Of a stretch of 64,000 bases of DNA, positions 862-57,580 are shown one piece after another. The position numbers and the translations under genes were made by a program. The stretch is from Cephalotus follicularis. Its lineage: Eukaryota > Streptophyta > Magnoliopsida > Oxalidales > Cephalotaceae. Each line of letters starts with the position of its first letter. Position 1 is the stretch's first letter. The stretch is from the NCBI GenBank assembly GCA_001972305.1, contig BDDD01001768.1, positions 62,001 through 126,000 on the forward strand, read 5' to 3'. The notes beneath the pieces were generated by a model, which did not search any database, had not been told where the DNA came from, and saw only the letters and a program-made list of their open reading frames with translations.

Positions 862-940
862 TAGCCGACTGTCACAGGGTAACAGTCGACTGCCTGATAC
901 GTGGTGTGACAGTCGACTGCCTGGTAAAGACAGTCGACTG
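862..940 (+). promoter_or_regulatory. D 5' LTR: TCGA array 1 (four sites)
   Basis: Four copies of the 10-bp palindrome CAGTCGACTG or a one-base variant, with cores at 864, 885, 912 and 933. Spacing is 21, 27 and 21 bp. The sister array in the 3' LTR (8251-8329) keeps the same spacing with point changes in two cores (GTAGAC, GTCAAC). It lies 152-230 nt into the LTR, the usual U3 region, so a regulatory role is plausible but unproven. Confidence 0.7.
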
Positions 941-2191
941 GAATGGTACAGAACAGACGTCTGGCATCCGCAGAGACAAGGATGACAAGTGTGCTAATCG
1001 TGGCATACATGAGGGATGCGTTTCACCACCTGCCATAACATGCAAGGGGAGTGCCTTGCATGCCCTCTATTCCTTCTGCAAGATTTGCAGACCTGCACTT
1101 GCAAAAACAGAAGAGAAAAGTGAGGAGAGGTGCATGTGAGAGAGAGAAGGAAAAGAGAGAAGGCTAAGTAATGTAGTCTGGCGATTCCTAAGTTTTTTTC
1201 TAAGCTCTATATCAGCTGTTAGATTATAGTTGAGTGTTAGAAAACACTGAGAGGAGAGGAGAATTGCTGGAGAATTGTGAAAGCTTGCATTTGAGGATTG
1301 GAGAGTTCAAAGAGACTTGGGAAGCTTTGATTCTCATGGTAAATCACTAATCCGAATACCTTAATGTTCTTATGGTTGTTAATAAGTATATGTGTTCTAG
1401 TCACCTCTATACATAACTTCTGTAACATGCAAGCATGGTAATTACTAGAAGTAGATTTGGTTAGTGGAGGGATATTGTTAATGAAAAAAAAAATGGAGAC
1501 TTAATGGATTATTAAGAATTACTGGAAAACAACTTTTATATTGCATATTATATATATATATATTATTGAACTGAATTAATTGAATTGATTGTCTATGTTA
1601 TTGCCGATTAGTCGAGTGATGACAGATGTCACTGGCTAACGGAGGTGGTCCTATGTGCCAAGAGCTGGCTAGGTACACACCCAAACTATCTGCAATGCAG
1701 ATCTTATTGTTAAACTGCCCGCTAATACCGGTAGTAAATGTTACCTTTATTATCATCTTCGGAGTGTAGGGTGATAGTTAGGTGGTGCACAGTTGGTGCT
1801 AGGAGTTAGCGACATGTGACACCCAAACCACATTATGAATTGATTGTACCCTTGTGCGGTATTCTTGCATTGTATTGTCTATGGCCACTTGACATGGTTG
1901 CTTATATAGTGGAATACTTAAATGTTATTTTAATATAAAATGTCATACATGTTGCATTCATATATTCCTTAGCATGCATTATCTTCCTACTTAGCCAAGT
2001 GAGGACAACGGCTAACCCCTACAATTTCAGATTAAGCGAAGACGTACGGGAGGTGCTGTTTTAGCTTTGGAGAGTTGCTTTTCTATCTTAAGGTTTTTAT
2101 TTTTATGATGTACTATATTTTAATGAACGGTTGATACCCTGTGATGCTGTTGTACTTTCCTTATGTATAAGGATATTGTTGGATTGTGCTT

Positions 2192-2213
2192 GCACGTAGT
2201 ATGAGCTGCGTGC
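2192..2213 (+). other. D 5' LTR: conserved stem-loop
   Basis: GCACG pairs with CGTGC around a loop containing TAGTATGAGCTG. The same structure lies about 150-170 bp from the LTR 3' end in A, C, E, H and the solo LTR in E, with different but still pairing stems (see findings). The 3' LTR copy is 10461-10482. Confidence 0.6.
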
Positions 2214-2364
2214 GGATGACATGTATTTTATATTCCGGCTTACTGAATTCTTCCGCTTATATATGAATTGTTGAATGGAATGCTGGAATATTATATTTAT
2301 TTAATTCTGATATCACCATATATGCTTGCCTCTAACGAAACCGAACGGCGGGGTGTGACAGGCA

Positions 2365-2376
2365 TGGTATCAGAGC
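2365..2376 (+). other. D: primer-binding site for initiator tRNA-Met
   Basis: TGGTATCAGAGC, 12 nt complementary to the 3' end of plant initiator tRNA-Met, four bases after the 5' LTR. This is the usual minus-strand primer site for Ty3/gypsy chromoviruses and fixes the LTR boundary and element orientation. Confidence 0.92.
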
Positions 2377-2464
2377 ATATTCCATATATGCTAGCTGGGA
2401 TAAGTTTCTCAGAAATTAAGTGAATTGTTTCCTAATGATTATGTCATTCCATATAGGAAACCGA

Positions 2465-3640
2465 ATGGACCTACGAAGAGGTAGAAGAGGAAAGTGTAGA
2501 GCCGACGAAGGTGTGAATGCACCGCCAGTGCCTGGAAATGACCCGGCAGTTAATGAAGGAGGGAATGTTCCCCCAGTGCATGATGAGAGGAGTCACTTTG
2601 ACCGCATGGCTGACCTCTTTCAACAACAGATGCAAGCTAATGCGGCCAACATGGAACAGATTCGGCAAATGTACGAGGCTAACTGGGCCTATCATCAGGC
2701 TCCTGAAGCTTGCCATACTGGTGGTTTTGGCCGAGATCTGGAGCGATTTATGAGACAGAATCCTCTGACATTCAATGGTCAGCTGAATGCTACTGTGACC
2801 GAGCAGTGGATTAGGGATTTGGAGAAAATATTTGCTACCCTGGAATGTACCGATGAGCAGAAACTCAGCTTTGCTGTATACCGCTTATGGGGCGAGGCTA
2901 CTTACTGGTGGGAAAGGACTGAAGCAAAATGGGAATCTCGTGGACTTGACCGGACTTGGGACAGATTTCAGTCTGAGTTTCTTGAGGCTTATGTGCCACA
3001 GATAGAGCGTGACCGATGGGAGACAGAACTGATGGAGTTACGTCAAGGAGACATGACGGTAGCTCAGTACCAGACCAGATTTGTGGAGCTAGCAAGACAT
3101 ACACCTTATCTTGTGGAGGTGAATCACGGATGATCCGAAGGTTTCTAAAAGGCCTTCGACCAGACATCAGATCTAAACTGTTGATGTTACAGCTGACCTC
3201 TTTTGTAGATGTTGCTGAGAGGGCGATGATTCTGGAGGTTGATGCGAATGAAAGGAGAGCAGGGCGGTCTCGTACTAATCAATCGAGGGCCGTACAGTCA
3301 CAAGGGTGAGGAAGTAATAATCCTGCTAAGTCAACAAAGTCTGACAACAGAGGTCAAGGAGGTTCTCGACGCAGAAACTCACGATCAAGGACACCTACCC
3401 GAAATAGTCAACAGAATGCAGGTGGATGTGTTTTTTGCGGTCGTCAGAATCATGATGAGACTGAATGCTGGAAAAAGATGGGGAAATGCTTGAGGTGTGG
3501 TTCGCAGGAACACATGATGAATAGTTTCCCGATTATGAGGGATCAAGCACGCGGCCAACAGGGAGGTGCGGGTGCTAGTGGTAGTGTTGCGGCTGCTCAA
3601 CCACAGAAGGAAACCGGGAAAGGGATTATGAAAGGTAGGG
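2465..3640 (+). pseudogene. D: gag, frameshifted
   Basis: The start at 2465 gives MDLRRGRRGK, the same start seen in A and C. The capsid-like region runs through residues such as FMRQNPLTFNG and YWWERTEAKWESRGLDRTWDRF. A one-base deletion near 3118 (GTGGAGGTGAA against GTGGAGGGTGAA in C) shifts the frame, and a TGA follows near 3307. Two zinc knuckles remain recognisable: CVFCGRQNHDETEC (3427-3469) is complete, but the second (3487-3528) ends in Phe instead of the last Cys. The product would be the nucleocapsid/capsid polyprotein that packages element RNA. It is non-functional here. Confidence 0.88.
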
Positions 3641-5443
3641 TCTACACCTTATCTAAAGATGATGTGCCAGAATCTACTACTGTAGTGGGAGGTACTATTT
3701 ATATATCTGGCATACCAGCTCATGTATTGATTGACCCTGGTGCGACGCATTCATTCATTGCATCTGAATTTGCTTGCAATTTGCATGGTATTACTTCTAG
3801 ACTACCTTATGTATTGGAGGTGAGTACTCCTGCGGGTACTTGTCTTCTATCTGATTCCATAATGAAAGATTGTGAGATCATGGTAGCTGGAATCCAATTA
3901 TCTGCTGACTTGATAGTGTTACCCATCCGGGATTTTGATGTAATCTTGGGGATGGACTGGCTGTATGCTCATCATGCTTGTGTTGATTGCTACAACAAGA
4001 TGATGACATTTTACCTTTAAGATGGGACTGAGTGCAAGTTTATCGGGGAGAAGAATGTTTCTGCTCCGATCATTTCATATACTCGAGCACAGAAGTATCT
4101 CAAGCAAGGATGCAAAGGCTATTTGGCGTATGTGATTGATCATACGAAAGGTATGCCCAGTATTGAACAAGTGCCTATTGTATGTGAATTTCCTGATGTA
4201 TTTCCATATGAACTCACTTCGTTGCCACTGGAGAGGGATATAGAGTTCAGTGTTGAGCTGTTGCCTGGAACTGCTCCTATATCCAGAGCACCCTACCGAA
4301 TGGCTCCCGCCGAACTGAAGGAGTTGAAGGTTCAATTACAGGATTACCTTGATAAAGGCTTTATCAGACCAAGTGTATCACCATGGGGAGCACCGGTTCT
4401 ATTTGTGAAAAAGAAGGATGGATCGATGCGGCTATGCATTGATTACAGGCTGTTAAATCAGGTAACAGTGAAGAACAAGTATCCTCTGCCACATATTAAA
4501 GAGTTGTTCGACCAGTTGCAAGGCTCAACTCTATTCTCCAAACTTGCCTGAGAACAGGATACCATCAACTGAGGATCAGAGAGTGTGATGTGGAGAAAAC
4601 CACATTTTGAAAAAGATATGGGCATTACGAATTTCTGATACTGCCGTTTGGTTTGACAAATGCTCATGCAGCCTTTATGCGTCTGATGAACAAAGTGTTC
4701 CAACTTTATCTTGACTAGTTTGTCGTTATATTCCTAGATGACATCCTGATTTATTCGAAGAGCATCGAGGAACACATGCAGCACTTGAGAATTGTATTGC
4801 AGACACTACGGAAGGAACAGCTATACGCCAAATTCAGCAAGTGCGAATTTTGGCTGGATCATGTGACTTTCCTAGGTCACATGGTGTCGAGTGAAGGATT
4901 GTCAGTGGATTATTCGAAGATAGAGAGTATTGTTGATTGGCCCCAACCGAGGAACGTTACTAAGGTCCGGAGTTTCTTGGGATTGGCTGGATACTACCGA
5001 AGGTTCATCAAGGGATTTTCGAAACATGCTACACCTTTGACACAGTTGAATCAGAAGAAGTCAAGTTTTGTGTGGGATGATTCCTGTGAGGAAAGTTTCC
5101 AAGAGTTGAAGAGTCGGTTGATTTCGGCTCCAGTATTGGCATTACCTGAGGGTAATGAGGGTTTTACTGTCTACATTGATGCTTCTGGGAAGGGATTGGG
5201 ATGCGTACTTATGCAACATGGTAGAGTGATTGCATACACATCAAGGAAGTTAAAGTCGTACGAGGAAAATTATCCCATACACGATCTTGAGTTGGCAGCC
5301 ATAGTGTTTGCTTTGTAGAAATGGAGGCACTACCTCTATCGTGCTCGGTTTGAGATCTTCACTGACCATAAGAGTTTGAAGTATTTGTTTTCCCAGAAGG
5401 AACTCAACATGAGACAGAGACGATGGGTGGAATTCTTTAATGA
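3641..5443 (+). pseudogene. D: pol part 1, protease-RT-RNase H (first copy), broken
   Basis: The protease active site DPGATHSF is intact at 3733-3756, followed by [14 protein letters not shown] at 4018-4020 replaces the Gln of the LQDGTE motif. RT starts near 4270 ([39 protein letters not shown]). A one-base deletion near 4548 (FSKLA then stop) and several TGA/TAG codons follow. The catalytic pair FLDD is still present at 4737-4742. RNase H reads [14 protein letters not shown] and [12 protein letters not shown], then TAG at 5316-5318. The sequence stops at 5443 inside the WVEFFN motif, where the second copy begins. Confidence 0.88.
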
Positions 5444-6952: not shown

Positions 6953-8115
6953 ATATAACTGACATATTCAATACCACCCTGGGAACGCGAATGTAGTGGC
7001 TGATGCCCTGAGTCGCAAGGCAATGATTGCTGGAGCAATGATTTCACAGTGGAAGCTATTGGAGGAATTTCAGAGATGGAATCCGTTCATGGTTTCCCGA
7101 GGAGTTATTGTGGCAAGTCTGAGAGCACAACCAAAACTTCTGGAGTGTATTCTGACTGCTCAGTATAGTGACACCGAGTTATGGGGTATTCGTGAGAAAC
7201 TAGACACCGATTCTGAGTTCTCCATTCACACTGATAACATTTTGAGGTTCCGAGGGAGGATATGTGTTCCGGATGATGAGAGCATCAAGACTGAGCTACT
7301 GTAACAAGCTCACAAGTCAAAATACAGTGTTCACGCTGGAAGTTCCAAGATGTGGCACGACCTGAAAAAGAACTACTGGTGGAGTGGTATGAAACGGGAG
7401 ATTGCTGAATAAGTAGCAAGTTGTTTGACCTGCCAGAGAGTAAAGGCTGAACATCACAAACCTGCGGCACTGCTACAATCGCTACCAGTGGTTGAATGGA
7501 AATGGGAGCATGTGACCATGGACTTCGTGTCAGGATTACCGAGGTCACGGAATCAGGATGAGGCAGTGTGGGTAGTAGTGGACAGACTTACTAAGTCTGC
7601 TCACTTCCTTCCGATGAACATGACATATTCTATCAAGAAGCTTGCTCGATTGTATATCCGGGATATAGTGAGATTGCATGGGGTGCCAGTCAGTATTGTC
7701 TACGACCGAGATGCTAGATTTACTTCAAGGTTCTGGAAGAAGTTCCAAACCGCTATGCGAGCAACCTTGAACTTCATCACTGCATTCCACCCACAGACTG
7801 ACGGGCAGTCCGAGCGTACTATTCAAACTCTGGAGGATATGTTACGGGCTACCATGATTGATTTTGCTGGGAGTTGGGAGGATCATCTAGCACTGATTGA
7901 GTTCTCCTACAACAACAGTTTTCACACCAGCATTGGAATGGCTCCCTATGAAGCTTTATATAGGAGAAAGTGCAGATCACCTATTTGTTGGGACGAAGTA
8001 GGTGAGAGACAAGTGCTGGGACCGGACTTGGTGCAAGAGACCACTGATAAAGTGGAAATAATCAAGAAGAGACTGCTAGCTGCACAAAGTCGGCAGAAGA
8101 GTTACGCCGATAGCA
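5444..8115 (+). pseudogene. D: pol part 2, second PR-RT-RNase H copy plus integrase
   Basis: The second copy (to 6952) repeats all defects of the first; its RT FLDD codons are at 6246-6251. After 6953 the original pol resumes: the RNase H end [15 protein letters not shown] carries an upstream TGA. The integrase zinc region (AHKSKYSVH ... CLTC) holds stops at about 7303 and 7410. The catalytic core is open from 7425 to 8123: Asp of TMDF at 7521, YDRDARF (Cys to Tyr before the second catalytic Asp) and [10 protein letters not shown] with the Glu. Sequence is lost after KSYAD, so the C-terminal domain and chromodomain are missing. Confidence 0.87.
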
Positions 8116-8116
8116 G

Positions 8117-10629
8117 CAATTAATGTATATTGCTCCAACTTTAAATAAAATATACATTTTAATTGAGATTAATTGTCCAATTATTATACGGATTGTGGTT
8201 GTTAATTTAATTGAGCAAATGAACCTAAAATAACCAAAAGCAGCCTTCGACAGCCGACTGTCACAGGGTAACAGTAGACTGCCTGATGCGTGGTGTGACA
8301 GTCAACTGCCTATTAAAGACAGTCGACTGGAATGGTACAGAACAGGCGTTTGGCATGCAGAGAGACAAGGATGACAAGTGTGCTAATCATGGCATGCATG
8401 AGGGATATATGTCACCACCTGCCATAACATGCAAGGGGAGTGCCTTGCATGCCCTCTAATCCTTCTGCAAGATTTACAGACCTGCACCTGCCAAAACAGA
8501 AGAGAAAAGTGAGGAGAGGTGCATGTGAGAGAGAGAAGGAAAAGAGAGAAGGCTGAGTAATGTAGTCTGGCGATTCCTAAGTTTTTTCTATGCTCTATTT
8601 CAGTTGTTAGATTAGAGTTGAGTGTTAGAAAACACTGAGAGAATAGGAGAATTGCTGGAGAATTGTGAAAGCTTGCATTTGAGGATTGGAGAGTTCAAAG
8701 AGACTTGGGAAGCTCTGATTCTCCTGGTAAATCACTAATCCGAATCCCTTAATGTTGTTATTGTTGTTAATAAGTATATGTGTTCTAGTCACCTCTATAC
8801 CTAACTTCTGTAACATGCAAGCATGGTAATTACTAGAAGTAGATTTGGTTAGTGGAGGGATATTGTTAATGAAAAAAAAAATGGAGACTTAATGGATTAT
8901 TCAGAATTACTCCTGGAACTTGTAATTTAATGAGAGGATTATTGATACTTACAGGTATTAATGCATGTGTTCGGAAACATACATGTTATAGATTAAATTC
9001 TTGCAAATTGGAAGATTGGTTGGTGAAAAGGCTTTGGAAACTCAAAGAGAGAGATCAATCCCAATTGATCTCGGCATAGAAATTGAGGTAGGGGTAATGA
9101 CATATTTTGGAAGATATGAGTATGCATATCATGTATGGTTATTTTCTGCTTGATTGCATGCATTGATTGGATTTGTATTAGGCATTGAAACATACAACCT
9201 GCTACTGCCTGCATTTTCTGGGCAAAGCAGTCGACTGTTCTTCATGATAGTCGACCACTCAACCTATCTAGTCGACTGTTAAACAGTCGACTGACCTAGG
9301 TTAAAATGCTGATATAGTTCCTGTTTGGGCCTCAATTTTAATGTAATTAATTTGGCCTCCACATGGATGATTAGAATAATCAATCCTGGCCTTATACACA
9401 ATTACATTTCAGAATCTAAACAAGTATGCACTCCTTGTGTGAGTTGCACATGAATGACTATGGTATGCTAATTACCTTATTGAATGTCTTGAATTGCTAT
9501 TATGCTTCACTGTTGCTGTATATACTACGTCATAATTCGTATATACTGCCTAAGTGTTCTTCAACACTATTATCACTTATATTCAATGATTAAACCAAAC
9601 TAAGTGCTATAAGCATGGATATGGATTCTTACTAATGGTTTCAAAATGAATACTTATTGCCAATGAATTGCTGCACCTCCTATGAGAGGTACCTACTGTT
9701 TTGTTCTCCAACTGGGAACCACTACTGTAGTGATATCGTTTTCCTCCTCTGAGATGTATGATCAATGAATTGTTAAATGTTTCTAAAGAAAACAACTTTT
9801 ATATTGCATATTATATATATATGTAATATTATTATTGAACTGAATTGATTGAATTGATTGTCTATGTTATTTCCGATTAGTCGAGTGATGGCAGATGTCA
9901 CTGCCTAACAGAGGTGGTCGTATGTGCCAGGAGTTGGCTAGAGTACACACCCAAACTGTCTGCAATGCAGATCTTATTGTTAAACTGCCCGCTAATGCCA
10001 GTAGTAAATGTTACCTTATCTTTCATCTTCGGAGTGTAGGGTGATAGTTAGGTGGTGCACAGTTGGTGCTAGGAGTTAGCGACATGTGACACCCAAACCA
10101 CAGTATGAATTGATTGTACCCTTGTGCGGTATTCTTGCATTGTATTGTCTATGGTCACTTGGCATGGTTGCTTATATATTGGAATACTTAAATGTTATTT
10201 TAATATAAAATATCATACATGTTGCATTCATATATTCCTTAGCATGCATTATCTTCCTACTTAGCCAAGTGAGGACAACGGTAACCCCTACAATTTCAGA
10301 TTAAGCGAAGACGTACGGAAGGTGCTATTGGAGCTTTGGAGAGTTGCTTTTCTATCTTAAGGTTGTTATTTTTATGATGTACTGTATTGTAATGAACGGT
10401 TCATACCCCGTGATGCTGTTGTACTTTCATTATGTAGAAGGATATTGTTGGATTGTGCCTGCACGTAGTATGGGCTGCGTGCGGATGACTTGTATTTTAT
10501 ATTCCGGCTTACTGAATGCTTCCGCTTATATATGAATTGTTGAATGGAATGCTAGAATATTATATTTATTTAATTCTGATATCACCATATATTCTTGCCT
10601 CTAACGGAACCGAAGGGCAGGGTGTGACA
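8117..10629 (+). repeat. D: 3' LTR (5' end truncated)
   Basis: It aligns with the 5' LTR from CAATTAATGTATATTGCTCC onward, so only about 20 bp are missing at its start, and it ends GGTGTGACA before the TSD ATACC. It retains the about 875-bp middle part lost from the 5' LTR. It carries array 1 (8251-8329), array 2 (9228-9293), the conserved TTTCAG block (10261-10299) and the stem-loop (10461-10482). Confidence 0.92.
9228..9293 (+). promoter_or_regulatory. D 3' LTR: TCGA array 2
   Basis: Four GTCGAC cores with spacing 20, 21 and 15 bp, mostly within CAGTCGACTG. It lies about 1.1 kb into the LTR. The 5' LTR has lost it with the internal deletion. Confidence 0.65.
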
Positions 10630-15984: not shown

Positions 15985-16130
15985 CCGCCGACGCCTACGG
16001 TCACACCGTCGACGCTTTAAGCCCTGACACGTGCACAATACGAAGGCGCCAACCGTCGACCTTTAAACGCCCAACATCGACACTTAAAGGCGTTAAGCAT
16101 CGACGCCTAAGGTTAAACCGGCGACGCTTT
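15985..16130 (+). promoter_or_regulatory. B: TCGA array 1, GCGTCGACGC type
   Basis: NTCGAC-like cores at 15987, 16008, 16055, 16076, 16099 and 16120: spacing 21, 47, 21, 23, 21. The flank is ...CGACGCYT rather than CAG...CTG, while the LTR position (148-293 nt) is the same as in D. Confidence 0.6.
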
Positions 16131-17055: not shown

Positions 17056-17193
17056 GCGTCGACGCTTACACATAACTGTCTACGCTTTGATACGAAAATG
17101 GCATAATAAGTCTTAGAATGCCGACGCTTAAGCTGTGTAATGTCGACGCCTAGTCATTAACCGTCGACGCTTATATAGTGACAGTCGCCGCTT
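17056..17193 (+). promoter_or_regulatory. B: TCGA array 2, GCGTCGACGC type
   Basis: About six GTCGACGCTT-like sites, some decayed (GTCTACGC, GTCGCCGC), at 1.2-1.36 kb into the LTR. This is the same relative place as array 2 in D and C. Confidence 0.55.
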
Positions 17194-18476: not shown

Positions 18477-18589
18477 CAGTCGACTGTTCCCAAGAACAGT
18501 AGGCTGTTTTGATTGAGTAGTCGATTGTTTCCTCTTAACAGTCGACTGGATAGATTGAGTAGTCGACTGCCATGAAGAACAGTCGACTG
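18477..18589 (-). promoter_or_regulatory. A LTR: TCGA array 2
   Basis: Six sites based on CAGTCGACTG, two with mutated cores (GTAGGC, GTCGAT). Spacing is 20, 21, 21, 21 and 20 bp. It matches the C array at 20777-20890 in order and spacer lengths. Confidence 0.7.
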
Positions 18590-19484: not shown

Positions 19485-19563
19485 TAGTCGACTGTCTTTA
19501 ACAGGCAGTCGACTGTCACATGACGTATCAGCCAGTCGACTGTTCCCCTGTGGCAGCCGGCTG
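19485..19563 (-). promoter_or_regulatory. A LTR: TCGA array 1
   Basis: Cores at 19487, 19508, 19535 and 19556 (the last GCCGGC), spacing 21, 27, 21 bp: the same spacing pattern as array 1 of D. Confidence 0.68.
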
Positions 19564-20776: not shown

Positions 20777-20890
20777 CAGTCGACTGCTCCCAAGAATAGT
20801 CGACTGCTTTGGTTGAGTAGTCGACTGCTTTGCCTTGGCAGTCGACTAGATAGGGTTGAGTAGTCGACTGCCATGAAGAACAGTCGACTG
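20777..20890 (-). promoter_or_regulatory. C 3' LTR: TCGA array 2 (six sites)
   Basis: Six GTCGAC cores at 20779, 20799, 20820, 20841, 20863 and 20883. Spacing is 20, 21, 21, 22, 20 bp, mean about 20.8. The flanks are CAG/TAG and CTG/CTA. The sister array is 27680-27793. Confidence 0.75.
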
Positions 20891-21655: not shown

Positions 21656-21761
21656 CAGTCGACTGTCCACAACACGCATCAGGCGGTCGACTGCTCTCCT
21701 GTGACAGTCGGCTACCCCTTCACAAACCAGGAAGTTGACTGCCCCCTGTGGCAGTCGGCTG
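21656..21761 (-). promoter_or_regulatory. C 3' LTR: TCGA array 1 (five sites)
   Basis: Cores GTCGAC, GTCGAC, GTCGGC, GTTGAC, GTCGGC, spaced 28, 21, 27, 20 bp. The sister array at 28839-28965 has one extra 21-bp unit. Confidence 0.7.
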
Positions 21762-21931
21762 TCAAAGGCTATTTTAGGGTTTCTTAGCTTGTTACTTCAC
21801 CAATTTTACATCCATTCATCCCAAGCAATTACCAAACACAATTTAATAATAATTGGACATTAAATTCAAATGAGTGCACATTTTATTAATCAATATTACA
21901 ATGTACACGAATTGAATTTGCGGTTATTACA

Positions 21932-27679: not shown

Positions 27680-27793
27680 CAGTCGACTGCTCCCACGAAT
27701 AGTCGACTGCTTTGGTTGAGTAGTTGACTGTTTTTCCTTGGCAGTCGACTAGATAGGGTTGAGTAGTCGACTGCCGTGAAGAAAAGTCGACTG
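27680..27793 (-). promoter_or_regulatory. C 5' LTR: TCGA array 2
   Basis: Six sites in the same order as 20777-20890, two changed (GTTGAC, AAGTCGACTG). Confidence 0.7.
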
Positions 27794-28838: not shown

Positions 28839-28965
28839 CAGTCGACTGGAGGCATTGTCCAGTCGACTGTCCACAACACGCATCAGGCAGTCGACTGCTC
28901 CCCTGTGACAGTCGGCTGCCCCTTCACAAACCAGGAAGTCGACTGCCCCCTGTGGCAGTCGGCTG
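28839..28965 (-). promoter_or_regulatory. C 5' LTR: TCGA array 1 with one extra unit
   Basis: Same as 21656-21761 plus one additional 21-bp unit at its left end: two CAGTCGACTG copies 21 bp apart follow GATC where the sister LTR has one. Confidence 0.72.
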
Positions 28966-31763: not shown

Positions 31764-32040
31764 CCAATAATCCAAACATAACTGTCGATCGCCCAAAACG
31801 GAGCGTGAAATATTACAGTACGAGATAACAAATATCCTTTGTTACAAAATCCGAATAACATGATCAATGTTATAATCATACAAGTTTTTCAAAATGGTTA
31901 ACCCCTTTTAGAAAGCAACCATAATGCAAATCACAGCAAAAATGCAACATATGCTCAGAATGCGTCTAGGTTCGTTCCTAGAGTCGTTTCGGGTCTAGCG
32001 GGTCCAATACGAGTGAAATTCTACTAATCAAGGGGATAGG

Positions 32041-32162
32041 CATCGATGTCTTTCCCTAAGGAGTCGACGTCTTCACACTAAGGCGTCAATCCCATGTACA
32101 AATATTCCCAGGCGTTCTTGGACCAAAGACGTCGATGTCTTTACAAAGACGTCGATGTCTTT
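32041..32162 (-). promoter_or_regulatory. E 3' LTR: TCGA cluster, GACGTCGATGTC type (third)
   Basis: Sites such as CATCGATGTC, AGTCGACGTC and two GACGTCGATGTCTTT units 20 bp apart. Confidence 0.6.
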
Positions 32163-32380
32163 ATGATACCAGAGAGTATCAGTTCGCGAGTCTTGATTCT
32201 GGAGGGTAGAAATCAGCCTTTTAATCCTTCATATAAATTAATCTCACTCTCTAAACGTGTAAGGCATGCTACTAGTTAACAGGAATATAACCAGAACATC
32301 AATTCGAAACCAAACAAGTGATTGCAAGTGGCTAAATGGCCATCTGAAATGAACATTACAGTTCTACGATTTCCCAGAAA

Positions 32381-32466
32381 AGGCGTCGATGTCTATCAAA
32401 AGACATCGATGTCTTTCAAATTTTCACACGAAGGCATCGACGTCTTTACATAGACGTCGATGTCTT
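32381..32466 (-). promoter_or_regulatory. E 3' LTR: TCGA array 2, GACGTCGATGTC type
   Basis: Four sites spaced 20, 31 and 20 bp: two, three and two helical turns. About 1.1 kb into the LTR. Confidence 0.65.
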
Positions 32467-37001: not shown

Positions 37002-38183
37002 TGTCACACCCCGTATTTCCATTCACGTACAATGGACCAGCATATGTGGTGATATCAGAAAATAAGCATAAATAATATTCCAGCATTTCGATTAATCATA
37101 AATAAAATTTGCGGAAGCATTCTATAAACCGGAATATATATAAAACCGTCCGCACGCATCCCATACAACGTGCGGGTAAAACCACAATTATCCTTACACA
37201 AAAGGAAAATACAACACTACGAGGTATGAACCGTTCAATCTCAAAATTACAGTACAACATCATAAGTAATCAACCTTAAATCAAAATTTCAATCTCGAAT
37301 TCATTCATTTAAGTGTTTGACAGAAGGTATGTAAATACTTAGAAACCATTTAAGCATTTGTTCTAACACTAACAACAATTAAAATCTATCTAGAGGCTAT
37401 ATCACCAATTCCACTTGCTCCAATTTACTACTTTCCATTTCTATTCCAAAGATTGTTATTCAAATCCATTAACAGAAGATATACAACATTTTTCCTAGTC
37501 ATTTTATCATCAAAATAACAAGAATTTTGGATCAAGGACTTACCAAGATTCTAAAGCTTCAAAGTCCTCCTTTTTGAGCTTTCTAACATCTCCAATGCAA
37601 GCCTTCCACAATCCTTAGTAACTCTCACTTCACTCTGTGTTTCTAACACTCAAACAACATTCCATCAGCAGATATACCTCTCAAGAACCTCTGAATTCAT
37701 CAGATTTGTTACCTACTCACATGCACTCCCATTTTTCTTTCATTCTTTCCACCACATGCCTCCCTCACTTCCACTTTCTCTCTTTATTTATTAATTAGTA
37801 GGTTTTAGATCTGCAGAGAACATGCAAACATTCGACTTTTGCATGTTCTGGCAGATGGTGGATGCATGTGCCCATACCTACCAATCTCTCTTGTCCCTGT
37901 ACATGCTAGGCATCTATCCTGGAGCAAACCAATCGACTGGAATTAGTGGGCAGTCGACTGCCTTCTTCACGTGGAAAATAGTCAACTGTTGCCCTGTGAC
38001 AGTCGGCTATTTGGGCTAGATTAGGGTTTCCTAGTCTTTGAAACTTCACCAATTGCATATCAATTCACCCCAAACATTTACCAATCATAGAAATCAGTAT
38101 AATTGGATAAATAACTCAATCAAAATGTATATTTTATTTCAATTTTGGATCAATATACATTAATTGAAGTTGCGGTTATTACA
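37002..38183 (-). mobile_element. Solo LTR (1182 bp) inside E
   Basis: TGTCACACCCCG ... TTGCGGTTATTACA with TSD GGGTA (36997-37001 and 38184-38188). It is related to the A/C/D LTR family but about half the length, so internally deleted. Stem-loop at 37151-37174 (CGCACG/CGTGCG). TCGA array 1 is present; array 2 is absent. Confidence 0.92.
37930..38009 (-). promoter_or_regulatory. Solo LTR in E: TCGA array 1
   Basis: Cores ATCGAC 37932, GTCGAC 37953, GTCAAC 37981, GTCGGC 38002: spacing 21, 28, 21. Confidence 0.68.
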
Positions 38184-39423: not shown

Positions 39424-40468
39424 TGTCACGCCCCCGTTTCCACAACAAGACAACATATCAAGTGGTAAGGCAATCAACAATAATAATTCAGCTCTTGCGA
39501 TAAAACGATAAAAAAAAACCTTAGATAGCGGAAGCAATAACGTAAATGAGCCAAATTTAAACACGCATCACGCATCCCATACTACGTGATGCCCAATAAT
39601 CCAAACATAACTGTCGATCGCCCAAAACGGAGCGTGAAATATTACAGTACGAGAGCCACCAGCAGCTCCAAGATCCTCTCAGCAACTGCTACCCACGAGC
39701 TCCAATCTCTAGCTCCAAGCAAACTCAACAATGGTGGCTCTCACACTCACTGTTTTCTTTCCTCTCTTTCCTTTGGTGTTTTAAAATGAGAGAGAGAAGT
39801 GGGGAGGGTTGTTCTTATGAAGATGGTTCCCCCCCCCAACATCATTCTCCTTACATTTAATGGGCACCTCTCGTGCCCTCTCCTACTTTCCAGATTCTGC
39901 ACTTTCCTTTTGTTTTCTTTAACCTTCTTTCTTTTGCAGGTTGCATGTTAGGATGCTATGTTGATTGCATGTTCCATGTGAGGGGCATGTTTGGAGCATG
40001 CCAGGCAACACACCATCATGATCCACTTGTCAAAATGCACATGTTTAAGCGTCTGTAAAGCCCCCAAAGATCCCCCACTGCATGTTACTTTGTCAGTGAA
40101 AAACGTGACAGACGTTCTTTACAAAGGCGTCGACGTCTTTACTTAAACGTCGATGTCTTTTCCCCCTTTTGTAAGAAGGTGACGATGCCTTCTTTCAATG
40201 TCGACGTGCATGCCCATGCATTCACGTGTACCTCGGTCCCCATAGGCGTCGATGTCTTTACAAAGACATCGATGTCTTTACAAAGACGTCGATGTCTTTG
40301 TCCCAAAATAGCGCCGTTTAAGTTTTGACATACACATTCCATTTCCAAAACCACAATTAGGGTTTGTAAGCATCTTTTGAGTTCAAAAACTCAACATTCT
40401 CATTAATTCAAGTTTAAGATTACATCATAAATCGAATTATTACATTCAGCAAAATACCGGGCGTTACA
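39424..40468 (-). repeat. E: 5' LTR (1045 bp, about 0.9 kb deleted)
   Basis: Matches the 3' LTR except that AGTACGAGA joins GCCACCAGCAGC near 39656, removing the middle with clusters 2 and 3. Stem-loop near 39565-39592. Its array 1 is 40126-40300. Confidence 0.92.
40126..40300 (-). promoter_or_regulatory. E 5' LTR: TCGA array 1 with one extra unit
   Basis: Between CCTCGGTCCC and TTTGTCCC there are three sites (40248, 40268, 40288) against two in the 3' LTR: one extra 20-bp unit. Several cores also differ by point changes. Confidence 0.72.
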
Positions 40469-42573: not shown

Positions 42574-43207
42574 TGTTGACAATTAAGTCTCAATCCTTGT
42601 TTTGATGATAACATATTTGAATCTAACTAAGTTACTTGATGTGCAAGGAATTACAAGTTGAATATCAAAGCAATATGCCATCTGCAGAAAAATAAGTCGA
42701 CTCCTTTCCAAATAGCATCGACGCCTTTTGTACAGAATGAACTGCAAAGAAAACATCTACCTCCCAGTATTAGCATCGACGTCCGTACCAAAAGAAGTCG
42801 ACTACTTCCATAAGACGTCGACTCCTTTCAAGATGACATCGACTACTTCATTGATAACATCGACGTGTTTTGACATTTTCTGGACCAGAAGCTACTGTAT
42901 GAAAATGCACTCAAAGACATCGATCCTTAAAGGAAAGACATCGACGTCCAAGTAAAAGACATCGACGTCTTAATATAGAGATCGACGCCATTTTCATCAT
43001 TGCTTCCTTAATCAAATCGAGATAGTGGAAACTCAAGGAGCTCCCTTGGGAAAAGTGGACGTAGGCAAGAGTTAGCCGAACCACTCTAAAAATCGGAGAA
43101 GTTTTTCCTTCCTTGTCTATTTACTTTTAAAGTTATTAAATTTCCGCATTTACTTCAATATTCAATTCACCCCCCCTCTTGTATATTGCAAGAGTGTTTT
43201 TATTTCA
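42574..43207 (+). mobile_element. Copia-like solo LTR (634 bp) in F
   Basis: TGTTGACAATTAAG ... TTTTTATTTCA with AAAAC at 42569-42573 and 43208-43212. The beginning (TTGTTTTGATGATAACAT) and the CAATTCACCCCCCCTCTTG near the end are typical of Ty1/copia LTRs of the SIRE/Angela kind (recognition from memory of the family, not a search). It shares no backbone with the gypsy LTRs yet carries TCGA arrays. Confidence 0.75.
42694..42989 (+). promoter_or_regulatory. Copia-like LTR: TCGA arrays
   Basis: NTCGAC/NTCGAT cores at 42696, 42717; 42775, 42797, 42817, 42838, 42859; 42919, 42940, 42961, 42981. Spacing within clusters is 21; 22, 20, 21, 21; 21, 21, 20. The flanks vary (AGTCGACTCC, CATCGACGTC). 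Confidence 0.72.
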
Positions 43208-43672: not shown

Positions 43673-43824
43673 CAGTTGACTGGCAGGAGAGACCAGCCGA
43701 CTGGATGGCTGCGTGTAGAGGCAGTCGACTGGTGGGAGGAACCAGCCGACTGGCCAACTGTCGAGCAATGTGGTAACAGACTGTCAGGCGCATAGCCGAC
43801 TGCCAAGGAATGAATAGTCGACTG
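43673..43824 (+). promoter_or_regulatory. H: TCGA array 1
   Basis: Cores GTTGAC 43675, GCCGAC 43696, GTCGAC 43724, GCCGAC 43745: spacing 21, 28, 21; two more sites follow (about 43795, 43817). The variant CAGCCGACTG contains GCCGAC, the core of the plant DRE/CRT element. Confidence 0.68.
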
Positions 43825-44644: not shown

Positions 44645-44903
44645 CAGTCGACTGTCGAAGGAAGGCAGTCGACTACTCATTGATCCCAGTCGACTGCCAA
44701 TGGAAAGCAGTCGACTACTCATACTTCTCCCTGCCCAGAAGATGAAATCTAGGAATTTTCTCCTGTGTGAATACTGGAACAGTCGACTGTTGAAGAACAA
44801 CAGCCGACTGCCTAATGGACCAGTCGACTGGTAGAATGAACCAGTCGACTACTCATACTGCTCAACCCATAAACAGTCGACTGGTGAGGATCCCAGTCGA
44901 CTG
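44645..44903 (+). promoter_or_regulatory. H: TCGA array 2 (ten sites)
   Basis: Cores at 44647, 44668, 44689, 44710 (21, 21, 21) and 44782, 44803, 44823, 44844, 44876, 44896 (21, 20, 21, 32, 20). The 32-bp gap equals three helical turns. Spacers are unrelated. Confidence 0.75.
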
Positions 44904-50458: not shown

Positions 50459-53400
50459 TATATTTGCTTTCCGAGATCGTTTAGTGGGTCAATTTATTGT
50501 TCTTATATTTCTAGGGGAGTAATTGTAAATTTTGAAAAGTTATTATTTAAGTCATTTCAGGTTTTCTTTTTGCAGAGAACATAAATGCATTGTCTTAAGT
50601 TGTTTTCCGTTATTTTGGGGTCAAATTCGCGTTCCGATATTGTTTAGTGGGTCAATTTATCGTTCTTATATTTCTAGGGGTTTAATTGTAAATTTAGAAA
50701 TGTTAAGTTTTAAGTTGTTTCAAGATTTCTTTTTGCAGACAACATAAATGTATCGTCGTAAGTTGTTTATCGTGATTTTGGGATCAAATTCGCGTTCCGT
50801 GATCGTTTAGTGGGTCCATTTATCATTCTTACATTTCTTGGGACATAATTGTAAATTTTGAAAATTTATGTTTTAAGTCGTTTTAGGGATTCTTTTTGCA
50901 GACAACACAAATGCATCGTCGTAATTTTTTTGACGTGATTTTGGGGTTAAATTCGCGTTCCGAGATCGCCTAGTGGGTTAATTTATCGTTCTTATATTCT
51001 TATAGGCATAATTGTAAATTTTAAAAAGTTTTGTTTTAAGTCGTTTCAAAGATTCTTTTTGCATACAACATAAATGTATCGTCGTAAGTTTTTTGCTGTT
51101 CTTTTGGGGTTAAATTTTCTTTTCGAGATTGTTTAGTGGGTCAATATATCGTTCTTATAATACTAGGTGAGTAATTGTAAGTTTTAAAATTTTATATTTT
51201 AAGTCGTTCCAGGGATTCTTTTTGTAGAAAACATGAATGCATCGTCATAAATTGTTTGCCGTTATTTTGAGGTCAAATTCATGTTACGAGATCGTTTAGT
51301 GGGTAAATTTATCGTTCTTATATTTTTAGGGGCGTAATTATAACTTTTAAAAAGTTATGATTTAAGTCGTTTCAGGGTTTCTTTTTGCAGACAACATAAA
51401 TGCATCGTCGTAAGTTGTTTAACGTGATTTTGGGGTCAAATTCGCATTTCGAGATCGTTTAGTGGATCAATTGATCGTTCTTATATTTCTAGGGGTGTAA
51501 TTATAAATTTTAAAAAGTTATGTTTTAGGTCATTTCTTGGTTTGTTTTTGCAAACAACATAAATGCAACGTTGTAAGGTTTTTGACGTGATTTTGGGGTC
51601 AAATTTGCTTTCCGAGATCGTTTAGTGGGTCAATTCATCGTTCTTATATTTCCATTGTCGGAATTGTAAATTTCAAAAAGTTGTGTTTTAAGTCGTTTCC
51701 GGGTTTCTTTTTGCAGACAACATAAAGGCATCAACGTAAGTTGTTTACCGTGATTTTGGGGTCAAATTCGCTTTCCGAGATCGGTTAGTGGGTCAATTTA
51801 TCGTTCTTAGATTTTTAGGGGCGTAATTGTAAATTTTAAAAAGTTATGATTTTAGTCATTACAGGGTTACTTTTTCCAGACAAAATACATGCATCGTCGT
51901 AAGTTGTTTACCGTCATTTTGGGGTAAAATTTGCGTTATAAGATGGTTTAGTGGGTCAATTTTTCGGTTTTATAATTCTAGGGGCGTAATTATAAATTTA
52001 GAAAAGTTATCTTTTAAATCGTTTCATGGTTTCTTTTTGCAGACAACGTAAATTCATCGTCATAAGTTGTTGACAGTGATTTTGTGGTCAAATTCGCGTT
52101 CCAAGATCGTTTAGTGGGTCAATTTATCGTTCTTATATTCTTAGGGCGTAATTGTAAATTTTAAAAAGTTATGATTTAAGTCGTTTCAGGGTTTCCTTTT
52201 GCAGACAACATGAATGCATCGTCGTAAGTTGTTTGCCATTATTTTGGGTTCAAATTTGCGTTCCGAGATCGTTTAGTGGGTCAATTTATCGTTCTTACAT
52301 TTCTAGGAGCATAATTGTAAATTTTGAAAAGTTATGTTTTAAGTCGTTTCGGGGTTTCTTTTTACAGAGAACATAAATGCATCGTCGTGAGTTGTTTGCC
52401 GTTATTTGGGGTCAAATTCTTGGTCTGAGATCGTTTAGTGAGTCAATTTATCGTTCTTATATTTCTAGGGGCATAATTATAAATTTTTAAAATTTATGAT
52501 TTAAGTCGATTCAGTGTTTCTTTTTACAGAGAACATAAATACGTCGTTGTAAGTTGTTTGACATAATTTTGGGTCAAATTTGCCTTTCGAGAACGTTTAG
52601 TGGGTCAATTTATCGTTTTCATATTTTTAGGGGCGTAATATAAAAATTTGAGAAGTTATGTTTTAAGTCGTTTCAAGGTTTCTTTTTTCAGACAGCATAA
52701 ATGAATTGTTGTAAGTTGTTTGTCATTATTTTTGGGTCAAATTCGGGTTCCGAGATCGTTTAGTGGGTCAATTTATCGTTGTTATATTTCTACGGACGTA
52801 ATTGTAAATTTTAAAAAGTTATTATTTAAGTCATTCCAGAGTTTCTTTTTGCAAAGGGTATAAATGCATCGTCGTAAGTTGTTATCCTTTATTTTGTGGT
52901 CAAATTCGCGTTCCGAGCTCGTTTAGCGGGTCAATTTATCGTCCTTATATTTCTAGGGGCGTAATTATAAATTTTGAAAAGTTATGTTTTAAGTCGGTTA
53001 AGGGTTTCTTTTTGCAGCCAACATAAATGCATCGCTATATGTTTTTTGCCATTATTTTGGGGTTAAATTCGCGTTCTGAGATCGTTTAGTGGGTCAATTC
53101 ATCGTTCTTATATTTTTAGGGGGGAAATTGTAAATTTTGAAAAGTTATGATTTAAGTCGTTTCATGGTTTCTTTTTGCAGACAACATAAATGCATCGCTA
53201 TATGTTTTTTGCCATTATTTTGGGGTTAAATTCGCGTTCCGAGATCGTTTAGTGGGTCAATTCATCGTTCTTATATTTGTAGGGGGGAAATTGTAAATAT
53301 TGAAAAGTTATGATTTAAGGCGTTTCATGGTTTCTTTTGGCAAACAACATAAATGCATCGTCGTAAGTTATTTGCTGTGATTTTGGGGTCAAATTCGCGT

Positions 53401-54551
53401 TACTAGATCATTTAGTGGGTAAATCTATCATTCATACATTTCTAGGGACGTAATTGTAAATTTTGAAAATCTATGTTATGAGTCGTTTCATGGTTTCTTT
53501 TTCAGACAACATAAATGCATCGTCGTAAATTTTTTACCGTGATTTTGGGGTTAAATTTGAGTTCCGAGATCGCTTAATGGACCAGTTTATTGTTCTTATA
53601 TTCCTGTGGGCGTAATTGTAAATTTTAAAAAGTTATGTTTGAAGGTGTTTCAAGGTTTCTTTTTACAGACAACATAAATGCATCGTCTTAAGTTTTTTGC
53701 CGTTATTTTGCGGTTAAATTCGCGTTCGAGATCGTTTAGTGGGTCAATATATCATTTTGATAATACTACAAGCGTAATTGTATGTTTTAAAAACTTATAT
53801 TTAAAGTCGTTTCAGGAATTCTTTTTACAGAGAATATAAATGCATCGTCATAAATTGTTTGTAGTTATTTTATGGTCAAATTCGTGTTCCGAGATCGTTT
53901 AGTGGGTCAATTTATCGTTCTTATATTTTTAGGGGCGTAATTATAAATTTTGAAAAGTTATGATTTATGTCGTTTTAGGGTTTCTTTTTGCAAACAACAT
54001 AAATGCATCGTCATAAGTTGTTTAATGTGACTTTGGGGTCAAATTCGCGTACCGAGGTCGTACAGTGGTCAATTTATCGTTCTTATATTTCTAGTGGCGT
54101 AATTATAAATCTTGAAAGGTTATGTTTTAGGTTGTTTCCTGGTTTCTTTTTGCAAACAAGACAAATTCACGTTCCTAGATCGTTTAGTGGGTCAATTTAC
54201 CATTTTTCTATTTCTAGGGGCGTAATTGTAAATTTTGAAAAGTTATGATTTAAGTCGTTTCAGGTTTTTTTTACAGACTATATAAATGCATCGTCATAAG
54301 TTGTTTGTAGTGTTTTTGGGGTCAAATTTGTGTTCTAAGATCGTTTAGTGGGACAATTTATCATTTTTATATTTCTAGGGACGTAATTGTAAATTTTGAA
54401 AAGTTATGTTTTAAGTCGTTTCAGGGTTTTTTTGCACATAACTTGAATGCATCGTCGTAAGTTTTTTGTCGTGTGTTTGGTGTTAAATTCCCGTTTCGAG
54501 GTCGTTTAGTGAGTCAATATATCGTTCTTATATTTTTAGGGATGTAATTGG
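50459..54551 (+). repeat. Satellite block S3, about 25 monomers
   Basis: Same monomer and strand as S1/S2. Two adjacent nearly identical monomers (about 53030-53190 and 53193-53350, sharing CATCGCTATATGTTTTTTGC) show recent local amplification. A shortened monomer near 54155-54180 (CAAACAAGAC joined to AAATTCACGTTCC) recurs in S6. Confidence 0.95.
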
Positions 54552-54770
54552 AAAGTTTTGTGTGGGATGATTTTTGTGAGGCAAGTTTCCAAGAATTGAA
54601 GAGTCGGTTGATTTCGGCTCCAGTATTCGCATTACCGGAGGGTAATGAGGGTTTCACTGTCTATACTGATGTTTCTGGGAAGGGATTGGGATGCGTTCTT
54701 ATGCAACATGGTAGGGTAATTGCATACGCATCGAGAAAATTAAAGCCGTACGAAGAAAATTATCCAGTAC
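54552..54770 (+). pseudogene. Isolated RNase H fragment in satellite
   Basis: Encodes [18 protein letters not shown], then [20 protein letters not shown] and [11 protein letters not shown]: the start of RNase H of the A/C/D family. It is cut at both ends. The satellite joins it in a short shared AAAGTT, and the right end runs into a (CA)n microsatellite. No stop within the 70 or so residues. This is a copied scrap of pol, not a gene. Confidence 0.82.
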
Positions 54771-55324: not shown

Positions 55325-55835
55325 AACTTACGACGATGCATTTATGTTGTCTGTAAAAAGAAATCCTGAAAAGACTTAAATCATAGCTTTTCAAAATTTA
55401 CAATTACGACCCTAAAAATATAAGAACGATAAATTGACCCACTAAACGATCTCGGAAAGCGAATTTGACCCCAAAACCAGGACAAACAATTTACGACGAT
55501 GCATTTATGTTCTCTACAAAAAAAATCCCTGAAATGACTTAAAACATAACGTTTCAAAATTTACAGTTACGTCCAAAATAACGACAAACAACTTACGATG
55601 GTGCAATTATGTTATCTACAAAAAGAAACCATGAAACGACTTAAATCATAGCTTTTCAAAATCTATATTACGCCCCTAAAAAATATAAGAACGATAAATT
55701 GACCCACTAAATGATCTCGGAGAGCAAATTTCACCCCAAATCATGGCAAACAATTTACGACGATACATTTATGTTATCTGTAAAAAGAATCCCTTAAATG
55801 ACTTAAAACATAACTTTTCAAAATTTACAGTTACT
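55325..55835 (-). repeat. Satellite block S4, inverted, about three monomers
   Basis: Reads as the reverse complement of S1-S3 (ACTTACGACGATGC, TGACCCACTAAACGATCTCG). One monomer is shortened. It stops inside AATTTACAGTTAC at the LTR fragment I. Confidence 0.93.
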
Positions 55836-55891
55836 GAACAAAGCCATGACATGAATGCATCATGATGCAGTACATACTATATCTTGATGCA

Positions 55892-55945
<54 letters not shown>

Positions 55946-56584
55946 CCCCAGAGTCATGATGTCACAATATCACATTGCATATTATCACATTTCACGGTTC
56001 ACAAACAAGTCCAAAGGACTACACAGTTCTTGGTTCATGGTTCATGGTGGGTACAAAAAGTGTCGCCATCGCCTGGCCCCAACGTCGTACTCCTGTCATC
56101 GGCCCTGACTCCGGACGGCACGAAGTAGGTCACGGTACAGTGAGTCACCCAGCCAACTCCTGGCCCCTGAGTTAACCCGACCACTAGTCATCACTGGCAT
56201 CTCCGCCACACAACTAGTACGGTCACAATCACAATCAGCATCACAGTCAAACACAATCACAATTATCTCGATGTTCAATTTAGTTTTCCAAGTAATTTAT
56301 AAAAAAAAATACTTGAAAACAAACTCATTTTCACGATGTCACGGTTCTCGATTCACGATGTTACAAAACTCAGTTCACAGTGTTTTGGAAGTCATTTTCA
56401 CGATATTTCAAAAATATATATTTTCTCAAAACATACATTTTTGTGTTAAGTAATGATTCATAATAATCATGTATGCACTTCCAACAAAAGATATAACAGT
56501 TCACAGTCAGTTATCACAATGCACAAATCAATTTATGACAATTCACAACGCATACACATGCTCACAATGCAAAACAGACCCTAA

Positions 56585-56920
56585 CAATCGGCCGTCTCTC
56601 ACTGGTAGTCGGCGGTTTTCCTTAAACAGTCGGTTGTCTCCCCCTGACAGTCGACTGTTTTCCTTCAACACTCGGCTGTCCTAACATTGGCAGTCAGCTG
56701 CCCACACTCGACAGTCGAATGTTCATACCCAACAGTTGGCTGCTGGCCTACAGCAGTCGGCTACTCAAGCCTCTGCAGGTATCTCTCAGTAAAACACATG
56801 GACAGTCGACTTGCTCCCAAGCACAGTCGGCTGGATCCATTGAGTAGTCGGCTGTTCATACTGAACAGTCGGCTGGCGCACTCGAACAGTCGGCTATCCC
56901 CTTTTGGACAGTCAGCTGGT
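56585..56920 (-). promoter_or_regulatory. I: TCGA/TCGGC array 2 (15 sites, strictly 21 bp)
   Basis: Cores at 56587, 56608, 56629, 56650, 56671, 56693, 56714, 56735, 56756, then 56805, 56826, 56847, 56868, 56889, 56911. Spacing is 21 or 22 throughout, apart from one 49-bp gap. Most are CAGTCGGCTG; some are GTCGAC, GTCAGC or GTTGGC. The largest and most regular array in the window. Confidence 0.8.
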
Positions 56921-57450
56921 TCCTACAGACAGTGCACAAAATAGTAGCGAAACAAAGCCATAACTCACAATAATCCATTACAACACAGAGCATTATCACC
57001 ACAACATCACATTCATGCTCATAACACAACACCTTGCATGCATTTCATCTTATGGACAATATTATAGCTGAACTTAAATCACAAATATAACACTTCCCCT
57101 ACCTTAGAACTCCAAGTTAGGAGTTTCAATCCACCTATTTAAGTCCAAACCTGAGGCTTTTGAGCTCCCAAAACTAGTCCAGCAACTCCACAATTTTGGT
57201 TCTTGCCGCAGGTTCAAGTCTCCAAGTCAAACAAGGCACCTTGGATCAACAACACACTCACTTTCTCCTCTTTCTCTCCACTCTTTTAACTTCTCTTCTC
57301 CTATCTGTGAAAATGGTGAAGATTGGGGGAGGAAAAACGTGTTTTTATGGAGGAAACACATCCCCCTCTCTTCTGCCGACATTAATACAAAACACTCCCC
57401 CCTTTTCTGCCAATAGTCTAGCGCGCATGTTGTGCTGCCAGACCTGTCGA

Positions 57451-57580
57451 CAGTCGACTGCCTCGACCTGGAAGTCGGCTATCTCCACCGACACTCCCCC
57501 ATTCGGCTGCTTCCCACAGCAGTTGGCTGGTTCCTTCATCAAGGGGGTCCAGTCGGCTGCCTCCTTATGGCAGTCAGCTG
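57451..57580 (-). promoter_or_regulatory. I: TCGA array 1
   Basis: Cores at 57453, 57474, 57502, 57522, 57552 and 57573: spacing 21, 28, 20, 30, 21. Position 143-272 nt from the LTR start, as in the other families. Confidence 0.68.

What the first reader, a model, noticed from the sequence alone, without database searches (positions are those of the whole stretch)
862..57580. LTRs carry helically phased arrays of a TCGA-centred palindrome
Across the LTRs of A, B, C, D, E, H, I, the solo LTR in E and a copia-like LTR, a 10-bp near-palindrome (CAGTCGACTG, or a family variant keeping TCGA or TCGGC) recurs every 20-22 bp, i.e. about two turns of B-DNA. The spacers are unrelated in sequence, so this is not an ordinary minisatellite. 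Longer gaps are often near three turns (31-32 bp in E and H). The best case is I (56587-56911): 15 sites, 13 of 14 gaps being 21-22 bp. In H array 2 the first gaps are 21, 21, 21. Such phasing places all sites on one face of the helix, as expected for cooperative binding of a dimeric protein. I do not know a described plant LTR system of this form.
Basis: seen in the sequence. Interest (0 to 1): 0.88.

Follow-up and report, generated by a model that had tools for sequence, protein, structure and literature searches.

The report
Paired oriented TCGA sites in LTRs
Jumping elements of different kinds in one plant genome carry very many copies of a short DNA word, set about 21 letters apart and facing the element's own reading direction, which looks like a shared switch for turning the elements on.

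Summary
The window is from the pitcher plant Cephalotus follicularis. CAGTCGACTG occurs 197,377 times in the 1.58 Gb assembly against 939 for the reversed word; 37,144 exact pairs lie 20-22 bp apart, control 132. Spacers are mostly unrelated, so it is not an ordinary minisatellite. Sites lie in gypsy and copia LTRs and, in two loci, just upstream of a third ORF.

Two corrections. The site is oriented: variants fall on its 5' half, so the sense strand reads RYCGAC (86 variants against 8); same-facing pairs outnumber one opposite arrangement 31,800 to 656. And 27-29 bp gaps recur and break helical phase, so whole arrays are not on one face.

Cores diverge about 3-fold less than spacers between lineages, but not between the two LTRs of one insertion: selection on active elements. 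Best reading: an oriented LTR enhancer array read by a trans-acting factor shared across families. RYCGAC is a catalogued CBF/DREB core, but the conserved arms go beyond it, so the factor stays open. No binding or expression was tested.

The parts
862..963 (+). Array 1 of the 5' LTR of gypsy element A (5 sites within 2 mismatches; gaps 21, 27, 21, 23)
8251..8329 (+). Array 1 of the 3' LTR of A (gaps 21, 27, 21)
9228..9293 (+). Array 2 of the 3' LTR of A (gaps 41, 15); the matching part is deleted from the 5' LTR
18477..18589 (-). Array 2 of the LTR of gypsy element B (gaps 20, 21, 21, 21, 20)
19485..19563 (-). Array 1 of the LTR of B (gaps 21, 27, 21)
20777..20890 (-). Array 2 of the 3' LTR of gypsy element C (gaps 20, 21, 21, 22, 20)
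21656..21761 (-). Array 1 of the 3' LTR of C (gaps 28, 21, 27, 20)
27680..27793 (-). Array 2 of the 5' LTR of C (gaps 20, 21, 21, 22, 20)
28839..28965 (-). Array 1 of the 5' LTR of C (gaps 21, 28, 21, 27, 20)
37930..38009 (-). Array 1 of solo LTR E inside element D (gaps 21, 28, 21)
43673..43824 (+). Array 1 of LTR H (gaps 21, 28, 21, 50, 22)
44645..44903 (+). Array 2 of LTR H (10 sites; gaps 21, 21, 21, 72, 21, 20, 21, 32, 20)
56586..56918 (-). Array 2 of LTR I (15 sites counting two weak ones read by eye; mostly GCCGAC type on the sense strand)
57451..57580 (-). Array 1 of LTR I (gaps 49, 20, 30, 21)
15985..16130 (+). Class 2 sites (RYCGACGC type) near the start of solo LTR S
   Evidence: outer limits by eye
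17056..17190 (+). Class 2 sites further along solo LTR S, cores 21-22 bp apart
   Evidence: outer limits by eye
32040..32465 (-). Class 3 sites (GACRTCGAYGTC) in or beside the left LTR of gypsy element D, doublets at 20 bp
40126..40297 (-). Class 3 sites in the right LTR of D, doublets at 20 bp
42694..42990 (+). TCGA-centred sites about 21 bp apart in a copia-like LTR (similar over about 70 bp to the LTR of copia locus L001)

Best explanation
These are oriented, multi-site cis-regulatory arrays in LTRs of many Cephalotus retrotransposon families. Each class 1 site is about 14 bp: a CAG[T/C]CGACTG core plus two flanking positions on each side where one base is avoided; other classes keep an RYCGAC core with other arms. 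Sites come as doublets or runs about 21 bp apart and face the direction of transcription. A trans-acting DNA-binding factor, or a small family of factors, shared by copia and gypsy elements probably binds them cooperatively and raises transcription from the LTR and, in some elements, of an internal ORF. Element lineages that lose sites make fewer new copies, which keeps sites while spacers drift. Shown: arrays, spacing, orientation, genome-wide excess, location, conservation between lineages. Inferred: protein binding, cooperativity, transcriptional activation. The likeliest single named class of factor is AP2/ERF of the CBF/DREB type because the sense strand reads RYCGAC; I give that identity alone about 0.25. 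The confidence below is for the oriented, factor-bound regulatory array, whatever the factor.
For: Genome-wide excess and spacing. Sites in LTRs, 3 in 30,696 bp of other stretches. Orientation: 86 variants against 8 in 25 units; 31,800 same-facing pairs against 656. Flank exclusions in two samples. Core divergence 0.103 against spacer 0.337 between lineages, near-duplicate rows left out, but 18/240 against 34/710 between LTRs of one insertion. CpG-decay form rare beside the GCCGAC form (21,361 against 177,392). In two related copia LTRs the array ends 43-44 bp before a TATA box; in two loci an array lies just upstream of a third ORF. RYCGAC, GTCGAC and RCCGAC are catalogued CBF/DRE cores (passages of PMC9138379).
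Against: No binding, expression or methylation data. Positions 2-3 and 8-9 are as conserved as the central bases, more than a lone RYCGAC site needs, and arms change symmetrically between classes. In gypsy LTRs array 2 lies downstream of the TATA-like stretch that I read by eye. Orientation could be partly inherited: the L001 copia array aligns weakly with gypsy arrays, so exchange or common descent of arrays is possible, and several of the 25 units are copies of one another. Two units are ties.
Confidence: 0.68

Rival explanations
1. One reading: a symmetric homodimer binds palindromes that all lie on one face of the helix.
For: Dyad-symmetric core and flank exclusions; 138 of 190 adjacent gaps are 20-22 bp; arms change on both sides between classes.
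Against: Variants are oriented; gaps of 27-29 bp recur in A, B, C, E and H and break phase.
Confidence: 0.12
2. An element-encoded activator or anti-silencer, working like VANC, reads the arrays; the PF20167 third ORF downstream of an internal array is one candidate.
For: VANC targets are also short, same-facing and dense, in non-coding parts (passages of PMC5735166). Arrays lie just upstream of this ORF in two loci. 349 relatives were found and the 120 listed are all from Cephalotus.
Against: No DNA-binding domain was recognised, the predicted model is unusable (pLDDT 41), and the window's gypsy ORFs that I scanned show only gag-pol domains.
Confidence: 0.09
3. A decayed minisatellite in which the core is kept only by chance or by unit duplication.
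For: A few spacers do resemble each other: 6.2% of within-array pairs reach 70% identity, 0% of shuffled and 2.4% of between-array pairs.
Against: Spacers otherwise unrelated; core conserved about 3-fold better between lineages; flank exclusions next to otherwise drifting bases.
Confidence: 0.03
4. The sites act in RNA, as hairpins or pairing palindromes.
For: Neighbouring palindromes can pair with each other by sequence.
Against: Flanking pairs -1/+11 are complementary in 79 of 226 sites against 71 expected, and -2/+12 in 80 against 76; no folding of arrays was run.
Confidence: 0.03
5. The arrays serve DNA methylation or nucleosome positioning rather than a sequence-specific activator.
For: Each class 1 site holds one CG and two CHG positions, by sequence.
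Against: This does not predict the orientation or the flank exclusions.
Confidence: 0.05

Closest known systems
VANC target motif arrays of VANDAL transposons in Arabidopsis (PMC5735166, passages read)
   Different: DNA transposons with a TE-encoded VANC protein shown to bind; [quoted passage not shown] no reader is known here.
DRE/CRT (CBF/DREB) sites in LTR promoters, as in tomato Rider (PMC6762207, passages read)
   Same: RYCGAC-type core inside an LTR; Rider's U3 holds DREs and a CBF site, and Rider responds to drought and ABA.
   Different: Rider is one family and its transcription did not respond to cold; here there are arrays with fixed step, conserved arms and fixed facing, in several families.
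BII boxes of the tobacco Tnt1 LTR (PMC3316501, passages read)
   Same: Repeated protein-binding boxes in an LTR promoter, said there to bind defence-induced factors.
   Different: One family and another motif; that the boxes are tandem repeats in U3 is recalled, not read.
Ordinary minisatellite
   Same: A regular step of about 21 bp.
   Different: Spacers do not align and cores are oriented and conserved.

Membership tests
CBF/DREB (DRE/CRT) binding-site array | Core RYCGAC on a fixed strand | tested here: met
   86 variants keep RYCGAC on the sense strand, 8 do not; catalogue entries
CBF/DREB (DRE/CRT) binding-site array | Conservation limited to the core and near flank of a monomer site | tested here: not met
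   Arm positions 2-3 and 8-9 differ at 0.01-0.10, like the central bases
CBF/DREB (DRE/CRT) binding-site array | Binding by an AP2/ERF protein and stress response | not testable with these tools
   no binding or expression data
VANC-type target array | Many same-facing copies of a short motif in non-coding parts | tested here: met
VANC-type target array | Element encodes the protein that reads the motif | tested here: inconclusive
   Window ORFs scanned show gag-pol domains only; ORF3 (PF20167) of other elements has no known function and no usable model
VANC-type target array | Loss of DNA methylation over targets | not testable with these tools
   no methylation data
LTR enhancer boxes of the Tnt1 kind | Repeated boxes upstream of the LTR TATA box | tested here: met
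   Two related copia LTRs, last site 43-44 bp before TATA; in gypsy LTRs only array 1 lies upstream of a TATA-like stretch read by eye
LTR enhancer boxes of the Tnt1 kind | Boxes bind induced nuclear factors | not testable with these tools
   no binding data
Ordinary minisatellite | Whole repeat units align with each other | tested here: not met
   Spacer identity 0.41 within arrays, 0.31 shuffled, 0.32 between arrays

The most novel reading that the evidence does not exclude
Retrotransposons of two superfamilies in one genome share one oriented doublet code (RYCGAC sites, step about 21 bp) read by a retrotransposon-encoded activator or anti-silencer, possibly the PF20167 third ORF, whose own expression is driven by the same array: an LTR-element counterpart of VANC that works in trans across families.
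Probability: 0.09. Interest if true: 0.92.

Novelty: new variant of a known kind. Interest (0 to 1): 0.72.

Why it matters
374,769 exact copies of two related 10-bp words in one plant genome, found in copia and gypsy LTRs and locked to the direction of transcription, suggest that unrelated retrotransposons depend on one trans-acting factor. If so, one factor could govern the activity of many families at once. Comparing lineages with the two LTRs of one insertion gives a direct way to see selection on a retrotransposon promoter. The arrays are also a natural library of site number, step and facing for testing enhancer grammar in plants.

Tried and rejected
Minisatellite decay: spacers mostly do not align. 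RNA stem: no clear excess of complementary flanks. One-face phasing of whole arrays: broken by 27-29 bp gaps; a period of 7 bp fits all pair distances about as well as the best helical period (R 0.53 at 7.0, 0.57 at 10.3), which may be a by-product of steps 21 and 28. ORF3 fold: model too poor, so no fold search was made; a profile search of solved structures gave nothing below E 0.11. A reversed-hexamer control for RYCGAC pairing overlapped the motif itself (25 of its 156 sites had a neighbour at 19-22 bp, against 145 of 285 for the cores) and I do not rely on it. CAGTCGACTG in papers: 29 papers hold it, 20 were listed, and none of those 20 titles is about plant LTRs. Searches for LTR palindrome arrays listed 2 and 3 papers, none of this kind by title and abstract start; one for DREB with LTR returned none; Cephalotus with retrotransposon listed 9 papers, none mentioning such arrays in title or abstract start. 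A genome paper looked up by a recalled DOI is not held. The doublet was absent from viral contigs, a collection where plant genomes are not expected. Never answered: the second opposite pair arrangement, the GACATCGACGTC count, a spacing control at 23-25 bp, a matK search.
Full report
What the window is. The window holds islands of a 163-bp satellite and nested LTR retrotransposons; five ORFs scanned from elements A, B, C and D carry Ty3/gypsy gag, protease, reverse transcriptase or integrase domains. A protein of contig C1650 matches a Cephalotus follicularis protein at 100% over 97% of the query, on a contig of the same length, 220,990 bases, so the host is the pitcher plant C. follicularis (Oxalidales). 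Self-comparison gives element A (711-10629, +) inserted in element B (-), element C (19592-29137, -) and solo LTR S inside the LTR of B, element D (-) with solo LTR E inside it, and LTRs H and I.

In 11 listed LTR stretches 92 ten-mers are within 2 mismatches of CAGTCGACTG, against 5.1 expected; 7 other stretches together hold 3. TCGA pairs at 20-22 bp number 39 in LTRs and 1 outside; shuffled LTRs give at most 3 in 200 trials, and a randomisation that keeps local density at most 10 in 1000. The assembly holds 197,377 CAGTCGACTG against 939 of the reversed word, and 37,144 exact pairs 20-22 bp apart against 132. Among the first 100 sites of contig C1, 37 of 63 gaps under 200 bp are 19-22 bp. 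Of 20 stretches taken from every hundredth contig, not chosen for the motif, 9 hold a class 1 array. A second class, AGCGTCGACGCT, occurs 28,659 times against 37.

The step. In 36 arrays (window, L001, L004 and the 20 stretches) 138 of 190 adjacent gaps are 20-22 bp, 18 are 27-29 and 14 are 48-52. The order 21-27/28-21 recurs in A, B, C, E and H. In the two other motif classes sites also pair at 19-21 bp: 17 of 28 gaps up to 60 bp for GACRTCGAYGTC and 18 of 24 for AGCGTCGACGCT. The recurring unit is thus a doublet about two helix turns long. Gaps of 26-35 bp are out of phase (mean cosine -0.37), so whole arrays do not lie on one face.

The site. Aligned by orientation, 180 sites in 27 arrays show a 10-bp core and flanks that avoid one base each: T at -1 in 3, C at -2 in 6, A at +11 in 8, G at +12 in 5 of 180. 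In 41 non-redundant spacers from contig C1 the same avoidance appears: A first in 4 of 82, G second in 5 of 82 ends. The core is not symmetric in its variants: position 4 is T or C, its mirror is nearly always A. In one search the orientation was set by this same variant, so independent orientation was needed. In 25 units that I oriented by LTR homology, LTR start, TATA, primer-binding site or coding strand, variants on the 5' half (GCCGAC 60, ATCGAC 26) number 86 and on the 3' half (GTCGGC 4, GTCGAT 4) 8; 23 units have a 5'-half majority and 2, E and L012, are ties. Several of those units are copies or relatives of one another. Within 16 arrays with two or more GCCGAC/GTCGGC variants, 14 are pure and 2 mixed (read). 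Genome-wide, same-facing pairs of this variant number 31,800 and one of the two opposite arrangements 656; the other was not counted.

Not CpG decay, not a minisatellite. The CpG-decay form is rare (21,361, control 4,173) beside the GCCGAC form (177,392, control 1,330). Spacers within an array are on average 41% identical, shuffled 31%, between arrays 32%; 6.2% of 355 within-array pairs reach 70%, so some unit duplication occurred.

Selection. With sites chosen in one sequence and scored in another, cores differ at 0.097 and spacers at 0.290 (all pairs), or 0.103 and 0.337 without near-duplicate rows; core CpGs are lost in 59 of 409 comparisons and others in 88 of 166; core positions range from 0.01 (position 2) to 0.19 (position 1). 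Between the two LTRs of one insertion (A, C, and a gypsy element of L010 whose two LTRs flank gag-pol ORFs) cores differ at 18 of 240 and other positions at 34 of 710; the D pair has no class 1 site and is not in those sums. So after insertion the cores are not protected. The counts are pairwise and not independent, and the LTR-pair sample is small. The contrast is what one expects if sites matter for making new copies and not for the host.

Where the arrays are. In A5, C3, C5, E, H and I array 1 begins 142-176 bp from the LTR start. Array 2 lies about 0.5-1.05 kb further on (from coordinates), after TATA-like and splice-donor-like stretches that I read by eye. L001 has an LTR followed by a copia gag; an LTR in L011 is similar to it over several parts. 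Their arrays of 12 and 18 sites end 43 and 44 bp before a TATA box. Two further arrays lie just upstream of a third ORF with the PF20167 domain: in L004/L008 downstream of an ORF with a weak zinc-knuckle match, in L009 downstream of an ORF that I recognise as copia RNase H from memory, Pfam giving no such match.

Shared or inherited? The arrays occur in copia and gypsy LTRs with the same facing. The L001 array aligns weakly (E 1e-4 to 1e-6, 70-83% over 50-100 bp) with gypsy arrays. That may come from the shared motif and step alone, but exchange or common descent of arrays is not excluded.

Mechanism. I favour an oriented enhancer array bound by a shared trans-acting factor. RYCGAC is catalogued as a CBF element (CBFHV), GTCGAC as the HvCBF2 CRT/DRE core and RCCGAC as the DRE/CRT core (passages of PMC9138379; 22 papers hold both CBFHV and RYCGAC, 8 listed). 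Tomato Rider has DREs and a CBF site in its LTR, responds to drought and ABA, and did not respond to cold (passages of PMC6762207). Against a plain CBF site, arm positions 2-3 and 8-9 are as conserved as the central bases and arms change symmetrically between classes. Closest in form are VANC target arrays (passages of PMC5735166). The PF20167 third ORF is a possible element-encoded reader: 349 relatives were found, the 120 listed all from Cephalotus, but its model was unusable (pLDDT 41), so this stays speculation.

Novelty. Regulatory repeats in LTRs and same-facing target arrays are known kinds. An oriented doublet code in elements of two superfamilies at this scale I did not find described in the searches listed, which cover only open-licence papers.

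Noticed in passing
3935-6952: Direct tandem duplication of 1,509 bp at 99.9% identity inside the reverse transcriptase region of element A: a recent duplication or an assembly artefact.
   Followed up: no
29265-31593, 50462-54560, 57723-58847, 62231-64000: Arrays of a 163-bp satellite, with retrotransposons B and D inserted into them.
   Followed up: no
1-29264: Nested insertions with short overlaps at the joins that look like 5-bp target-site duplications: A in B, C and solo LTR S in the LTR of B.
   Followed up: partly
36 arrays in window and samples: Frequent steps 21, 28, 42, 49 and 63 are all multiples of 7; a 7-bp period fits pair distances nearly as well as the helix repeat. Unexplained.
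   Followed up: partly
L009 6098-6928, L008 1537-2721: A third ORF with the PF20167 domain; 349 relatives were found and the 120 listed are all from Cephalotus. Function unknown.
   Followed up: partly
41931-42042, 45998-46224, 46886-46976: Short tandem repeats with units of 37, 29-57 and 43 bp, not related to the arrays.
   Followed up: no
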